64,000 nt of DNA from an uncultured Ruminococcus sp. (GTDB lineage: Bacteria > Bacillota > Clostridia > Oscillospirales > Ruminococcaceae): NCBI GenBank assembly GCA_902780505.1, contig CACZFN010000003.1:1-64000 (forward strand), written 5' to 3'. Position 1 is the first letter of the stretch. The number at the start of each line of letters is the position of its first letter. Made by a program: the position numbers and the translations under genes. Positions 34,047-38,312 of the stretch are shown piece after piece. A model generated the notes under the pieces. That model saw only the letters and a list, made by a program, of their open reading frames with translations, did no database searches and was not told where the DNA came from.

Positions 34047-34103
34047 TGCACCCATTTTATCCCTTCGGGGGTATTAATTACAGAAAGGCAAAAACATAGA
34101 TTA
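34047..34103 (+). promoter_or_regulatory. Bipartite CACCC-N16-GGTATTA element, copy A
   Basis: CACCC, exactly 16 nt, GGTATTA. The 16 nt end in the hairpin CCC-TTC-GGG abutting the second box, and CAAAAAC follows 12 nt later. Copies C (34264) and B (37028) keep the boxes and the spacing while the stem sequence changes. It is 290 nt upstream of the pilin gene with no ORF of its own. Orientation is taken from the downstream genes. Confidence 0.6.
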
Positions 34104-34125
34104 TTATTTTGGAAGAAATAAGCCG

Positions 34126-34187
34126 GACTGTTGATAAAGCAGTAATTTCTGAGGACAAAAACACGTGTTTTCAAAAAACAGCAGTCC
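34126..34187. repeat. Small inverted-repeat element, relic of the 43141 repeat family
   Basis: GGACTGTTGATAAAGCA on the left and AAAACAGCAGTCC on the right can pair. CTGTTGATAAAGCA recurs exactly at 43142-43155, and the AAAAACACGTGTTTT segment parallels AAAAACATAGTTTTT at the end of that element. It looks like a copy that lost its middle. Confidence 0.5.
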
Positions 34188-34216
34188 TTGACAAATCACT
34201 ATAAAAGTTGTCTAAT
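34188..34216 (+). promoter_or_regulatory. Promoter of the pilin/solenoid operon
   Basis: TTGACA, 17 nt, TCTAAT. Transcription would give a leader of about 110 nt containing element C. Confidence 0.75.
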
Positions 34217-34263
34217 ATAGGGATAGACGCAGGGGCTTAGGTGCCCGGGTATCTGTAATATTC

Positions 34264-34335
34264 ACCCGTATACCTGATTTCAGGGTATTACTGATAGACA
34301 AAACAAAAACACCCATTTTACAGGAGGAATCAATC
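34264..34335 (+). promoter_or_regulatory. Bipartite element copy C and ribosome site of the pilin gene
   Basis: CACCC, 16 nt, GGTATTA with the stem CCTG-ATTT-CAGG. It is followed by CAAAAAC, CCCAT and ACAGGAGG leading into the pilin ATG. Copy B has the same order of pieces before the 402-aa gene. Confidence 0.6.
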
Positions 34336-34749
34336 ATGAAGAATTCAGTTAAGAAAAAACTTATGCTTATGACAGCAAAGGCAATGGGCGCAGCTTGCGC
34401 AGCACAGATGGCAATGTTCACAGCATTTGCAGAAACAACAACAACAAAGAAGAAGAATAACCCCGATGCTGACCTTGATAAGGTTACAGAGCCTATTATC
34501 GGGCTTGTAAATCAGGTGCTCAACGTACTTATCCCGCTTGTTGCAGCTGTAGGCGGCGTGTTCTGTGTAAGCCTCGGCCTTAAATATGCAAAGGCAGAAG
34601 AACCCCAGGAAAGAGAAAAGGCAAAGCAGCATCTCAAGAGTGCTATCATAGGCTTCTCGCTTATCTTCATTCTTGTAGTTGTTCTCAGGATCGCTGAAAT
34701 AATGATCAACCCCTTTAACCCGAAAAAGGATCTTTATTATGAAATATAA
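34336..34749 (+). CDS. VirB2/TrbC-like pilin
   Basis: 137 aa. The N-terminus has a basic start and a weak signal peptide ending in FTAFA (about residue 32). The mature part has two long hydrophobic helices (about 58-84 with LIPLVAAVGGVFCVSLGL and 104-124 with AIIGFSLIFILVVVLRIA) joined by a short charged loop. This is the plan of type IV secretion VirB2/TrbC pilins and their Gram-positive conjugation relatives. No VirB4, VirB6, coupling protein or relaxase is in the window, so it is an orphan. The stop overlaps the start of the solenoid-like gene by 11 bp, so the two are co-translated. Confidence 0.75.
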   Translation: MKNSVKKKLMLMTAKAMGAACAAQMAMFTAFAETTTTKKKNNPDADLDKVTEPIIGLVNQVLNVLIPLVAAVGGVFCVSLGLKYAKAEEPQEREKAKQHLKSAIIGFSLIFILVVVLRIAEIMINPFNPKKDLYYEI

Positions 34750-36952
34750 ATCTTTAATAAGAAAAAAACGAATAGAGATACTTGCGCTTGCCGCCGCATT
34801 GGCTTTCACCTTTGCGGCTGACAGCCTTTTCAGGCCTTTTGACTTTTATGCATCCGCAGCTGCTGAATCTGATGACGATGAAAGTTCATCCGCAGAAGAT
34901 ACCGAAGCTGAGATCAAATCTGATATACTTGATGTAACTCACGGCAGCGTGGAATTCTGGCGCTGTGAAAGAGTCGGCAAGAATAATTACCCGCAGGACA
35001 GCGAGTGGACAATGTCGCTGTTTTTCTTCGGAGATTACTCTATGCCGTTCAGGGACGACAAGCTTTTTTCAGCCCTTGCGCCTAATGCCATTACAATAGG
35101 TCCTGAGGCCGATCCGATACCGGGTGTTTCAAATGTCATCACCAAGACACACGGCAGTGAGTATTATTCACGATTTGTGTCCGACAGCAGCGGTGCATGG
35201 GGCGATACTATAAGGGAACAGTATGCCCATTATATAGCCCTTGACACTACATACACCCAGCCTGCAAGCCAAAGATTGTTCGGCGCAGATACAAGCAAGG
35301 ACGTATTCTTTACAACCGCTGACATGAACCCTGTTTATGTAAAGTATACGGGGACAAACAGTAACGAAGGCTCCGGCGTTATAGGTTCCAAATGGCCGAT
35401 GTATAAGATCAGGCTCAAAAGCAGCAATGACAGGGAATACTACCTTGCACCTACAGACAAGAACAGTGAATCTCTGCCTAAGATAGTCACAAGCGAGAGC
35501 AGCGCCAAGAGTTTTACCTTCCGCCCGTTTGATATGAACAGCGGGAATGCACTGGACAACAATATGATGATGCTTGCATTCAACTCGATGCTGAGCAATC
35601 CTTCACAGGCAAATGTTCTTAAAGCTTTTTACGGCGTGAGCACTATAGAAGAACTTAAAGAGGTCAGCATCAGGAACGGCATAGTCTGGGTGCCTTATAT
35701 TTACGATAAAGGCAACGATGACGAAGTTCTCGTAACAAGAAACACAAGCTTCGTTTTCACTGCTGATGACGGCGACTACGGAAGAATGTCCGACAGGTGC
35801 AAATGGTATATAGGCAAAAAGTATTTGTTCTCGGCACTTGAAGGCACAACCACCATTAAGGAAGGTCAGATACTAAGCATTTCCGAAAAAGACTATATAA
35901 GGGCTGACGGCGGTCAGGACAGCCAGAACGGCGTTATATTAAGAAACGGCAATAAGGTAATAATCGAAAAGGGCGGTATTCTAAGTATCGAGGGCAACTT
36001 TATCAACAACGGTACTATAGAAAACCGCGGCGGCACTATAATTGTCAAAAAGGGCGGCGCTATATTCCCGTTCCAGCAGGGCTCTGATGTTTCTAAAAAC
36101 GGCTGCGGCTCTATCAAGTGCGTCGGCGGCGATATCATTATCCAGAAGGGCGGCGCTATCTATGGCGGGCTTTCGGATATAAAGGGTTCACCCTGCCCCT
36201 TTTGGCTTGATGACGGTTCTGTGCTTATGAATCAGGGCTTGCTCGTTTACGGCGGCCTTCGCCTTGGCAGCGACGCAAGAGTTGAGCTTTATGAAGACAG
36301 CGTTACATACGGCTCCTACGGCTCACAGAAAGATGCCACGGGCTGCGAATATCTGGTCAAGCCTTCCAATGGCGATGATAACGAATGGATGGTGTCTTAC
36401 GTTTATGATGACGGCACCACGGGAACGGATCAATCGCTTTCTCAGTTTATGTATGGGATAAGATATTCATGGGGTGATGTCCTGTATAATGATTATTTGA
36501 CCGAGTTTAGCTCTTATACCGACAGCGAAAAGCAGGCTTTTGCCGATAAGGTTGTCGAGGAAGCGAAAAAGAATGGCAGCAATATCGTAATAACTCACAG
36601 CGAAAACAGATACGAGAATGCTTACGGTAATGTTTATAACAGCAAGGAAGAGGCTATAGAGTATACCGAGGGCCTCGGCTATCAGTTCGTGGAAGAAGAC
36701 AGTGACGGCACTTTGCACTTTACACTCTATAACTTTGACGCAAACTTTAACGATCTTTTAAGCAAGAATAATACAGCGTTTTTAAACGGCACACTTACAA
36801 AGCTTGAATTTATTCAGGAGTGTAAGGGGCTTCAGGGTATGTACTATCAGGGAGTGCCCACACGTATGCCTACAATATCTAAGGCTTCAAGTGCTAAGTT
36901 CACGGATATAAGTAAAACTTCCAGCCTTAAACCTACCGATTTAACACTTTGA
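34739..36952 (+). CDS. Large secreted protein with beta-solenoid-like middle
   Basis: 737 aa, family not recognised. A signal-type helix (IEILALAAALAFTFAADSLF) is followed by an acidic Ser/Glu stretch, a region of about 330 aa rich in Tyr, Asp and Ser, and a run of short strands with regular Gly/Asn turns (about 395-520: VIIEKGGILSIEGNF, GTIENRGGTIIVKKGGAIFP, DIIIQKGGAIYGG, GLLVYGGLRLGSDARVEL) that fits a right-handed beta-helix. A charged C-terminus follows. There is no LPXTG, dockerin or S-layer motif. Translation overlaps the pilin gene, which suggests that the pilin and this protein work together, possibly as a surface appendage and adhesin; that is inference. Confidence 0.7.
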   Translation: MKYKSLIRKKRIEILALAAALAFTFAADSLFRPFDFYASAAAESDDDESSSAEDTEAEIKSDILDVTHGSVEFWRCERVGKNNYPQDSEWTMSLFFFGDYSMPFRDDKLFSALAPNAITIGPEADPIPGVSNVITKTHGSEYYSRFVSDSSGAWGDTIREQYAHYIALDTTYTQPASQRLFGADTSKDVFFTTADMNPVYVKYTGTNSNEGSGVIGSKWPMYKIRLKSSNDREYYLAPTDKNSESLPKIVTSESSAKSFTFRPFDMNSGNALDNNMMMLAFNSMLSNPSQANVLKAFYGVSTIEELKEVSIRNGIVWVPYIYDKGNDDEVLVTRNTSFVFTADDGDYGRMSDRCKWYIGKKYLFSALEGTTTIKEGQILSISEKDYIRADGGQDSQNGVILRNGNKVIIEKGGILSIEGNFINNGTIENRGGTIIVKKGGAIFPFQQGSDVSKNGCGSIKCVGGDIIIQKGGAIYGGLSDIKGSPCPFWLDDGSVLMNQGLLVYGGLRLGSDARVELYEDSVTYGSYGSQKDATGCEYLVKPSNGDDNEWMVSYVYDDGTTGTDQSLSQFMYGIRYSWGDVLYNDYLTEFSSYTDSEKQAFADKVVEEAKKNGSNIVITHSENRYENAYGNVYNSKEEAIEYTEGLGYQFVEEDSDGTLHFTLYNFDANFNDLLSKNNTAFLNGTLTKLEFIQECKGLQGMYYQGVPTRMPTISKASSAKFTDISKTSSLKPTDLTL

Positions 36953-36962
36953 TAGCTTTTAT

Positions 36963-36997
36963 CAAGCCCTCGGGTAAGCCCGGGGGCTTGTTTTTTT
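36963..36997 (+). terminator. Terminator of the pilin/solenoid operon
   Basis: CAAGCCCTCGGG, TAAG, CCCGGGGGCTTG, then seven T. Confidence 0.9.
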
Positions 36998-37026
36998 CCT
37001 ATTTTGCCTTATGTTTTTTAAAAAAA

Positions 37027-37103
37027 TGCACCCAAACCCGCCTGACGGGGGTATTACTTACGAAAGAACACAAAAACCCATATAAAACAGGAGAGGATAA
37101 GTT
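37027..37103 (+). promoter_or_regulatory. Bipartite element copy B and ribosome site of the 402-aa gene
   Basis: CACCC, 16 nt, GGTATTA with the stem CCCG-CCTGA-CGGG. It is followed by CAAAAAC, CCCAT and ACAGGAGAGGA before the ATG. No ordinary -35/-10 pair is visible between the terminator (36997) and this gene, so the element itself may be the promoter. Confidence 0.6.
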
Positions 37104-38312
37104 ATGCCAAAATATACTAAAGACCAGCTCAATGCTACAGCAAAAAGCAGATTGGAATATTATGAAAATCAGCTCGAAACAGAAAAGCTTCGTTATCAGA
37201 AAGTAAACGATCGCTTCGGTAAAAACGGTAAGATATCATCTGATCTTCTATCCGGCAAAAAGCCTTATAACGATGAAGACGTTGAAAAATATAATTCTAT
37301 AACCCTGCCTGATGTTCCGGGTATGGATGATGATATGATATCGCTTATAGGCGTTGGTGTGTCATTTGATAAAAAGTATGTAAGAAAAACCAGCTCCTCT
37401 GCGGGAAATCTGGGCCCTGAGGACTTCCACCGTGTATTTGTCACCAGCAATATCATCCCCGCCGATCCCAGAACGATAGATTATTCTGATGCAATGCCTA
37501 AAATACGTGAGGAAACAAAGAATGTCCTTGAAGAATACAACAAGGGTAATAAAGAGCCTGTAAAGAAAGCACTCAGAAATATCGCTGATCATATCAAAAA
37601 TGACAGCGGCACTTTAGAGTTCAACGCTAACCAGGCCGACGGCATCTATAATAAGGGCTTTTATAAAACAATAGGCGAGTTTATGAATGACAAGGATCTT
37701 GGCGTTGAAAAAATGTTCAGCGAAAAAGACCTTTTAAGGGTAAAGGCAAACGCTAAGAAGTTAGATGCATATGAAAAATCAAACAATGCCGCAAAAGAGC
37801 TTTTATTAAACCCCGCTGATGCAAACACCCCCGAGCGTGAACAGCAGGTGCTTGATTATATGCTTAATATGGCAACAGCTTCTGTGACATCCAAATCAGT
37901 CGTAAACGAGGAAGATTCATATAAAGACCTTGTAGATTCAATAGGCGACTTTATTGATAATGATCCCAGAATTATAGCTGATGAAGAAGGAATGTCAAAA
38001 ACCAACACTGATATCATAGTAGACCTTAACCAAACAATAGCCCAAAAAGTTGATGACAAAAAGGCAGCATCAGCTAAATACAAGTTCGCTTATGATAATG
38101 TTATAGGCAACAAGTCATCAAGCCTTCTGAGAGATATCTATCAGAAAGATAATGTAGCCCCTGAAGAAGCTATCCTCAGCGAAGAAAACGGCGAGGAAAA
38201 GCTAAAGGAACAGCTGAAGACCAAGATCAAGGAATCTGACCTGTATCAGAGCCTTATGAAAGCCGAAAGCCCAAATCAGATGGCTATGGCACTTAACAAG
38301 GCTGATCTGTAA
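37104..38312 (+). CDS. Unrecognised helical 402-aa protein
   Basis: No family recognised. No signal peptide or membrane helix; highly charged and mostly helical, with Lys/Glu-rich stretches (e.g. RLEYYENQLETEKLRYQKVN at residues 17-36) and short coiled-coil potential near both ends. The frame ends ...MAMALNKADL, but the -1 frame continues immediately with coding-like text for 50 codons (38309-38461). The annotated end may thus be an artefact of a one-base change. The gene has its own copy of the bipartite element and AGGAGAGGA before its ATG. Association with the pilin/solenoid pair is by shared leader and position only. Confidence 0.75.
   Translation: MPKYTKDQLNATAKSRLEYYENQLETEKLRYQKVNDRFGKNGKISSDLLSGKKPYNDEDVEKYNSITLPDVPGMDDDMISLIGVGVSFDKKYVRKTSSSAGNLGPEDFHRVFVTSNIIPADPRTIDYSDAMPKIREETKNVLEEYNKGNKEPVKKALRNIADHIKNDSGTLEFNANQADGIYNKGFYKTIGEFMNDKDLGVEKMFSEKDLLRVKANAKKLDAYEKSNNAAKELLLNPADANTPEREQQVLDYMLNMATASVTSKSVVNEEDSYKDLVDSIGDFIDNDPRIIADEEGMSKTNTDIIVDLNQTIAQKVDDKKAASAKYKFAYDNVIGNKSSSLLRDIYQKDNVAPEEAILSEENGEEKLKEQLKTKIKESDLYQSLMKAESPNQMAMALNKADL

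What the first reader, a model, noticed from the sequence alone, without database searches (positions are those of the whole stretch)
34047..37103. Three copies of a new bipartite element, CACCC-N16-GGTATTA, serving one gene cluster
The boxes at 34049, 34264 and 37029 are each separated by exactly 16 nt. The 16 nt always end in a small hairpin next to the second box, and the stem changes while pairing is kept (CCC/GGG, CCTG/CAGG, CCCG/CGGG). CAAAAAC follows 12-14 nt later, and two copies share CCCAT...ACAGGAG up to the start codon. Fixed spacing suggests an alternative-sigma or activator promoter; the compensating stem suggests an RNA element. I found no other copy in the window.
Basis: seen in the sequence. 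Interest (0 to 1): 0.8.

Follow-up and report, generated by a model that had tools for sequence, protein, structure and literature searches.

The report
ECF sigma promoter of secretion regulon
The repeated two-box element is most likely the promoter read by a dedicated sigma factor of rumen Ruminococcus bacteria, and it marks a genome-wide set of genes for a type IV secretion machine and a large family of unknown proteins that may be its cargo.

Summary
In detail: three exact CACCC-N16-GGTATTA copies (34049, 34263, 37029; the second start was given one base off). A matrix trained only on copies outside the window scores them 47.5, 41.2 and 29.6; the next best site scores -2.8. The window genome holds 10 exact copies. 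Five of six other genomes of the genus hold 6-18, and 54 genomes of other genera hold 0 or 1 each.

It is best explained as the -35/-10 promoter of one ECF sigma factor. The sigma gene, first in a chromosomal type IV secretion (T4SS) operon, carries the element exactly 3 nt before its ATG in 14 of 14 orthologues (2 end GGTATTC). Where that -35 box reads CAACC, the genome's other copies read CAACC too, and two columns of sigma region 4 differ with it.

Of 88 copies, 59 precede ORFs of one BLAST-linked, mosaic superfamily of large hydrophilic proteins; others precede the T4SS pilin or lie in virB4. The hairpin is not a general feature (27 of 88 against 20.3 expected), so the RNA reading fails. 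That the big proteins are T4SS cargo is inference.

The parts
34047..34085 (+). Promoter copy 1: TG + CACCC (-35, 34049-34053), 16-nt spacer, GGTATTA (-10, 34070-34076), then ATTACAGAA; 259 nt before the pilin ATG
   Evidence: matrix score 41.2
34261..34299 (+). Promoter copy 2: CACCC (34263-34267), 16-nt spacer, GGTATTA (34284-34290), then CTGATAGAC; 45 nt before the pilin ATG
   Evidence: matrix score 29.6
37027..37065 (+). Promoter copy 3: TG + CACCC (37029-37033), 16-nt spacer, GGTATTA (37050-37056), then CTTACGAAA; 47 nt before the ATG of the 402-aa gene
   Evidence: matrix score 47.5
34336..34749 (+). T4SS pilin-like (VirB2-type) membrane protein, 137 aa; near-copy of the pilin gene that follows the sigma gene on contig C17
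   Evidence: PF18895 E 5.3e-10, NF045849 E 5.3e-14; alignment to the C17 copy
34739..36952 (+). 737-aa protein with hydrophobic N terminus (by eye), no family over its cut-off; 33% identical over 580 columns to the protein between pilin and VirD4 in the FC2018 T4SS operon
36963..37000 (+). Terminator-like stem of 12 pairs plus T run, between the pilin unit and the third promoter
   Evidence: 7 terminator-like sites found in the region, 3.0 expected
37104..38312 (+). 402-aa hydrophilic protein, member of the regulon's superfamily; no Pfam family over its cut-off, no NCBIfam family; helical model without PDB match at E 0.001

Best explanation
The element is a DNA promoter. TGCACCC(A/G)(A/T)(A/T) is the -35 element and GGGTATTA the -10 element, 16 (sometimes 17) bp apart, recognised by an ECF sigma factor whose gene heads a chromosomal T4SS operon (in the window's genome on contig C17). 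The sigma factor drives its own gene; the element ends 3 nt before the sigma ATG, so that transcript is probably leaderless. It also drives the T4SS genes and scattered further genes, most of them for large hydrophilic proteins. In the window it drives a second copy of the pilin gene with its neighbour (two tandem promoters) and, separately, the 402-aa superfamily member. Shown by sequence: recurrence, position, autoregulatory placement, co-variation with the sigma factor, co-occurrence. Inferred: that RNA polymerase starts there, that this sigma is the one that reads it, and that the large proteins are exported by this T4SS.
For: 10 exact copies in the genome; 17, 14, 0, 6, 18 and 18 in the six other genomes of the genus, one copy in each of 3 of 54 genomes of other genera and none in the rest. 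56 of 88 copies are followed 28-75 nt on by a Shine-Dalgarno plus ATG opening an ORF of 240 aa or more, against 336 of 20000 random positions in the same loci. ECF identity: TIGR02937 E 4.8e-30, Sigma70_r2 and r4 over cut-off. Element 3 nt before the sigma ATG in 14 of 14 orthologues with diverged spacers, 2 of them ending GGTATTC. G003 has 0 CACCC but 4 CAACC copies; G064 has 7 and G071 2 CAACC copies with GGTATTA. The only two of 155 sigma columns that separate 3 CAACC from 10 CACCC orthologues, 137 and 145, both lie in sigma region 4. Aligned to M. tuberculosis SigH, 145 falls at a residue beside its -35 base readers. Conservation beyond the boxes reaches YTTATRRAA after the -10 and an A/T-rich stretch before the -35. 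A test blind to the element: protein search with the window protein found 9 places, one its own gene; of the 8 others, 4 carry the exact element in the 140 nt upstream, a fifth carries it before its true start, and 3 show altered versions by eye (one mismatch; gap 17 and one mismatch; three mismatches).
Against: No transcription start has been mapped. 5 of 88 copies lie in the virB4 3' region, in five genomes, but FC2018 has none there. G004 has 6 copies but no orthologous sigma was found (58% complete). G066 has CACCC...GGTATTC at its sigma gene, while its only GGTATTA copy reads CAACC; four orthologue-bearing genomes have only 2-4 matches. Seven of the 88 chosen ORFs are unlinked singles, several unconvincing, and some picks inside the superfamily are short. 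G000 has 15 ECF-like matches, any of which could in principle read the element. The region 133-148 in the column test was chosen after seeing the columns; 13 of 286 triples separate at two or more columns anywhere, 1 of 286 at two within 133-148. The tree gives 3 changes of box type, but starred branches force only 1.
Confidence: 0.9

Rival explanations
1. An RNA element in the leader: the stem next to box 2 and the two boxes act in the transcript (riboswitch, attenuator or processing site).
For: All three window copies have a 3-4 pair stem with changed sequence; over 88 copies stems of 3 or more (27 against 20.3, sd 3.4) and of 4 or more (8 against 4.5, sd 1.9) are in slight excess.
Against: 61 of 88 copies have no such stem of 3 pairs; sigma-gene copies such as that of L161 lack it by eye; the element ends 3 nt before the sigma ATG, leaving no leader; no Rfam family matched there at gathering score; the leader folds at z -1.4.
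Confidence: 0.03
2. A binding site for an activator or repressor that works with the housekeeping sigma, not a sigma-specific promoter.
For: Long conserved element; sequence alone cannot exclude it.
Against: Two boxes at -35/-10 spacing with an A/T-rich upstream part and a conserved start region, autoregulatory placement and co-variation with sigma region 4.
Confidence: 0.05
3. The promoter is real but another ECF or alternative sigma of these genomes reads it, the T4SS-linked sigma being only a target.
For: 15 ECF-like matches in G000; G004 has copies but no orthologue was found.
Against: This sigma's region 4 differs in step with CACCC/CAACC; the other sigmas were not tested for that. Eleven of eleven genomes reached through sigma orthologues have the element and the two reached through distant relatives have none.
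Confidence: 0.07
4. The T4SS is an ordinary conjugation apparatus of an integrated element, and the large proteins are accessory or unrelated cytosolic proteins, not cargo.
For: VirB4, VirB6-like and pilin best match conjugation (ICE) families NF045975, NF045848, NF045849; PF03432 relaxases occur in 5 of 7 genus genomes, in G005 one about 25 kb from the sigma gene.
Against: No PF03432 match within 35-95 kb of C17 around the operon of the window genome (the one on C17 is at 22.8 kb); sigma-first order kept in FC2018; targets scattered over many contigs.
Confidence: 0.4

Closest known systems
HrpL / hrp box regulon of plant-associated bacteria (sigma factor driving a type III secretion system and its effectors; only the starts of the abstracts of PMC2957411 and PMC3879358 were seen; its ECF nature is recalled)
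   Same: One alternative sigma, a promoter box before many scattered genes, a secretion machine in the regulon; the box can be used to list the regulon
   Different: Here a Gram-positive type IV system, different boxes, a sigma placed first in the T4SS operon with its own element, and cargo status untested
Canonical autoregulated ECF sigma promoters (AAC in the -35 box, CGT in the -10 box; passages of PMC8103513)
   Same: Autoregulatory placement, fixed boxes and spacer, protein of sigma regions 2 and 4
   Different: Boxes are CACCC/CAACC and GGGTATTA; no anti-sigma gene recognised next to it; a STAS protein follows VirB4
EcfK of Xanthomonas citri, which regulates a type VI secretion system (passage of PMC8103513)
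   Same: ECF sigma regulating a secretion system
   Different: Other machine; activation needs a neighbouring kinase; its promoter was not compared
Mbov_0395, MMCAP2_0566/Mbov_0396 and Mbov_0397 conjugal transfer families (NCBIfam)
   Same: Pilin, VirB6-like and VirB4 proteins of the window genome match these models
   Different: Headed by a sigma gene; no PF03432 relaxase next to it; VirB4 below the curated cut-off (533.9 of 590 bits)

Membership tests
ECF (group IV) sigma factor | Only sigma regions 2 and 4 in a protein of about 160 aa | tested here: met
   PF04542, PF08281 and PF04545 over cut-off, TIGR02937 E 4.8e-30; 156 aa from the MNDEEIV start
ECF (group IV) sigma factor | Autoregulated: own upstream region carries the regulon element | tested here: met
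   14 of 14 orthologues, always 3 nt before ATG; 3 with CAACC, 2 with GGTATTC; regulation itself not measured
ECF (group IV) sigma factor | Cognate anti-sigma factor co-transcribed | tested here: not met
   No anti-sigma domain recognised in the neighbouring genes scanned; next genes are pilin and VirD4. By the passages of PMC8103513 later definitions rest on regions 2 and 4 only
Canonical ECF promoter (AAC / CGT) | AAC in -35 and CGT in -10 | tested here: not met
   CACCC or CAACC, and GGGTATTA; CAACC variants do contain AAC
ECF promoter | Transcription by this sigma from the site | not testable with these tools
   needs in vitro transcription or 5' end mapping
Conserved RNA element | Kept, co-varying stem | tested here: not met
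   27 of 88 against 20.3 expected
T4SS, Mbov_0395/0396/0397 type | Pilin, VirB6-like, VirB4 and VirD4 in one operon | tested here: met
   window genome; FC2018: pilin, VirD4 and VirB4 by Pfam, VirB6-like there by place and size only
Conjugative element | Relaxase and integrase with the T4SS | tested here: inconclusive
   No PF03432 within 35-95 kb of C17, but one 25 kb from the sigma gene in G005; other relaxase families and integrases were not searched
T4SS effector | Export that needs VirD4/VirB4 | not testable with these tools
   only indirect: shared element; no hydrophobic run above 5 in the first 35 residues of 55 of 55 superfamily ORFs of 240 aa or more; P/Q/N-rich tails

The most novel reading that the evidence does not exclude
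Rumen Ruminococcus species carry a chromosomal type IV secretion system turned from conjugation to protein delivery, under its own autoregulated ECF sigma factor, which switches on the machine together with a rapidly diversifying arsenal of large effectors without known domains (up to about 14 under exact copies of the element in one genome, more with gap 17); the CACCC-N16-GGTATTA promoter is the tag by which the whole arsenal can be listed, and the sigma and its box have co-evolved between lineages.
Probability: 0.45. Interest if true: 0.9.

Novelty: new variant of a known kind. Interest (0 to 1): 0.74.

Why it matters
It turns a two-box pattern seen in one window into a dedicated regulon: a sigma factor, its promoter, a T4SS and a superfamily of large proteins, none of whose known-family hits recurs in more than 2 of 51 scanned proteins. 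If the large proteins are cargo, this is a protein-delivery system in Gram-positive rumen bacteria, with unknown partners (bacteria, protozoa, fungi or host). The natural CACCC/CAACC switch also gives a ready test of how ECF region 4 reads the -35 box.

Tried and rejected
RNA element: rejected (hairpin count; Rfam; fold z -1.4). Recent duplication of the leader: not supported, since blastn of the leaders found nothing at E 1e-3 in the other fetched loci and copies in other species share little but the boxes and their flanks. Chance: rejected. Fold comparison of the 402-aa window protein (mean pLDDT 75.3, 8 aligned sequences) and of the most shared domain (mean pLDDT 87.0, 17 sequences) with the PDB gave no match at E 0.001, so no function follows. 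Pfam and NCBIfam scans took 51 proteins: 50 of the 88 chosen ORFs, picked to drop short ORFs and close repeats and to stay under the residue limit, plus one neighbouring gene; they gave only families hit by one member (two for one NCBIfam model), fn3 at 1.6e-10 being the strongest. The distant sigma hit G021/L191 has no element before it and sits in another context; it and the far hits L168 and L169 were left out of the orthologue count. Literature: nine answered searches and one for HrpL listed no paper on this promoter, sigma or regulon that I recognised from titles and abstract starts; only open-licence papers are held, so absence from print is not shown. PMC6411747 was seen in passages and section 8, PMC8103513 in passages, the others in listings only. 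The match of sigma column 145 to SigH H185 is my own reading of the alignment with a two-residue offset deduced from the residue names.
Full report
What was checked. The three copies are exact and at the stated places, save that the second begins at 34263. A position matrix trained on 85 copies from outside the window gives the three window copies 47.5, 41.2 and 29.6; the next best of all window positions on both strands gives -2.8, and the best in three block-shuffled windows 10.8.

Recurrence. The exact pattern occurs 10 times in the window's genome, with 1 match of the reversed control. In 60 related genomes it occurs 17, 14, 0, 6, 18 and 18 times in the six of the same genus, and once in each of 3 of the 54 genomes of other genera; the reversed control occurs in 3 of the 61 genomes, the own one included. 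With the gap free between 13 and 21, 78 of 97 matches in the seven genus genomes have gap 16 and 13 have gap 17; the reversed control gave 3 (gaps counted by hand).

Shape. Over 88 collected copies (G000 10, G001 17, G002 14, G003 4, G004 6, G005 19, G006 18; the four of G003 and one of G005 are CAACC) the conserved part is TG-CA(C/A)CC-(A/G)(A/T)(A/T)-N10-(G/A)GGGTATTA-(C/T)TTAT(G/A)(G/A)AA, preceded by an A/T-rich stretch. The rest of the spacer is not conserved. A stem of 3 or more pairs beside box 2 is found in 27 of 88, 20.3 (sd 3.4) being expected from shuffled spacers; of 4 or more in 8, 4.5 (sd 1.9) expected. The hairpin is thus a weak excess at most, and the sigma-gene copies of several species lack it by eye.

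Place. 56 of 88 copies are followed at 28-75 nt by a Shine-Dalgarno and an ATG that opens at least 240 codons; of 20000 random positions in the same loci 336 are. In the window, copy 2 lies 45 nt and copy 3 47 nt before an ATG, and a terminator-like stem at 36963-37000 separates the two units. Copy 1 lies 259 nt before the pilin gene and looks like a second, tandem promoter.

The sigma factor. One copy, on contig C17, stands before a gene for an ECF sigma factor (TIGR02937, E 4.8e-30; Sigma70_r2 and r4). Orthologues at 70-100% identity are in 6 of the 7 genus genomes; G004, 58% complete, gave 36% at best. A pattern scan of the genome collection (84,980 species) gave 13 relatives: 11 orthologous loci in Ruminococcus or Oscillospiraceae records, 5 of whose titles name a rumen or omasum (the RUG-numbered ones and the isolate Ruminococcus sp. 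FC2018 are of rumen origin by recall), and two distant matches in other bacteria. In 297 genomes sampled from the family, 7 have an orthologue and one (G021) a distant relative without the element. Each of the 14 distinct orthologues has the element exactly 3 nt before its ATG, 11 with CACCC and 3 with CAACC, 2 of the 14 ending GGTATTC, with diverged spacers and flanks. That placement leaves almost no leader, so the sigma transcript is probably leaderless, the TTATG of the start region serving also as start codon; this is inference.

Co-variation. Three orthologues have CAACC instead of CACCC before them (L160, L166, L167). In those genomes the other copies also read CAACC: G003/G070 has 4 CAACC and 0 CACCC copies, G064 7 CAACC and no CACCC with GGTATTA (two with GGTATTC), G071 2 CAACC and no CACCC. 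The CACCC genomes searched have 0 or 1 CAACC copy with GGTATTA each; G066 is an awkward one, its sigma copy reading CACCC...GGTATTC and its only other copy CAACC...GGTATTA. The 11 orthologue-bearing genomes have 2 to 19 matches of the looser pattern, with 1 reversed-control match in each of three; the two genomes with distant sigma relatives have none. Of 155 sigma columns only 137 (A/A/E against V or T) and 145 (S/S/Y against L or R) separate the 3 from the 10 orthologues compared, and both lie in region 4. Of all 286 ways to pick three orthologues, 13 have two or more separating columns anywhere and 1 has two within 133-148, a range chosen after the columns were seen. By alignment to M. tuberculosis SigH column 145 falls on a residue that in that structure contacts the -35 backbone, beside the base-reading ones. 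The tree needs three changes of box type, though well supported branches force only one. I read this as a sigma factor and its promoter changing together.

The regulon. On C17 the order is sigma, pilin, VirD4, a 321-aa membrane protein, VirB6-like, VirB4, STAS, a 1774-aa protein. In FC2018 the order is the same by Pfam, place and size, with one more gene between pilin and VirD4, and that gene is the homologue (33%) of the 737-aa protein of the window. The window pilin and the C17 pilin are near-copies, the C17 one lacking 21 residues. So the window's pilin pair looks like a moved part of the T4SS operon that kept the sigma's promoter. In five genomes a copy of the element lies in the 3' region of virB4 (the whole virB4 ORF was displayed only for G000, the others are judged by the homologous end of the reading frame), where it could drive the genes beyond; FC2018 has none there.

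The other targets. Of the 88 chosen ORFs, 59 fall in one group linked by BLAST at E 1e-4 (single linkage, so a mosaic rather than one simple family, and a few picks are short or doubtful), 6 are the sigma itself, and 7 are unlinked singles. Superfamily members under exact copies number 4, 11, 12, 2, 4, 12 and 14 in G000-G006. Of the 59, 55 have 240 aa or more; 46 of the 55 begin Met-Pro, and none has a hydrophobic run above 5 in its first 35 residues. Their last 25 residues, some cut at contig ends, are rich in P, Q and N and poor in D, F and Y. Three further targets are exported-type proteins of 521-530 aa with a hydrophobic N terminus. Scans of 51 regulon proteins against Pfam and NCBIfam gave no family shared by more than two. 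The most shared domain (about 320 aa, in 20 of the 88 ORFs) occurs in 7 of 7 genus genomes and in 0 of 54 others. Models of the window protein and of that domain are helical and match no solved structure at E 0.001. The window protein's 8 homologues found by protein search alone were checked upstream: 4 have the exact element in the stretch scanned, one has it before its true start, and three have altered versions, which also shows that exact matching undercounts the regulon.

How it most likely works. When the unknown signal frees or induces the sigma factor, it directs RNA polymerase to TGCACCC/GGGTATTA, at its own gene and T4SS operon (positive feedback) and at the scattered targets. Membrane machine and large soluble proteins appear together. 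The simplest use for that is export of those proteins by the T4SS, in the way that HrpL runs a type III system and its effectors; no tool here can test export. No relaxase of family PF03432 lies within 35-95 kb of C17 around the operon, though relaxases exist in 5 of 7 genomes and one lies about 25 kb from the sigma gene in G005, so a conjugative role is not excluded.

Judgement. ECF regulons that run secretion systems are known; this one differs in boxes, machine, lineage and targets.

Noticed in passing
L011 8849-8876 (contig C17), and L134 678, L149 13433, L113 13634, L105 7685: A copy of the promoter lies in the 3' region of virB4 in five genomes, so protein and promoter seem to be kept in the same bases; FC2018 has none there.
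   Followed up: partly
L012 1167-1511 and window 34336-34749: The pilin gene after the sigma gene lacks 21 residues, while the near-identical window copy has them: a decayed original and a moved copy.
   Followed up: partly
L118 971 and L126 1022 (G005): Two copies reading AAAGGTATTA precede small ORFs with EAVSGG or GVAGG, which recall (from memory) Nif11-type peptide leaders; possibly chance copies.
   Followed up: no
L012 2478-3800, L011 7801-8100 and L172 (contig C17): An HD-domain protein and a STAS protein and, by eye, PP2C-like and kinase-like ORFs lie near the T4SS; a partner-switch type of control of the sigma is conceivable.
   Followed up: no
L015 4899-4926, L101 725, L132 5098: The element also precedes a short protein of about 67-75 aa (MNE.TIDAALR.L.QNVPR-like, by eye) in three genomes.
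   Followed up: no
window 34125-34193: Between the two tandem promoters lies an inverted repeat (GGACTGTTG...CAGCAGTCC, by eye) followed by TTGACA; the leader holding it matched none of the other fetched loci.
   Followed up: partly
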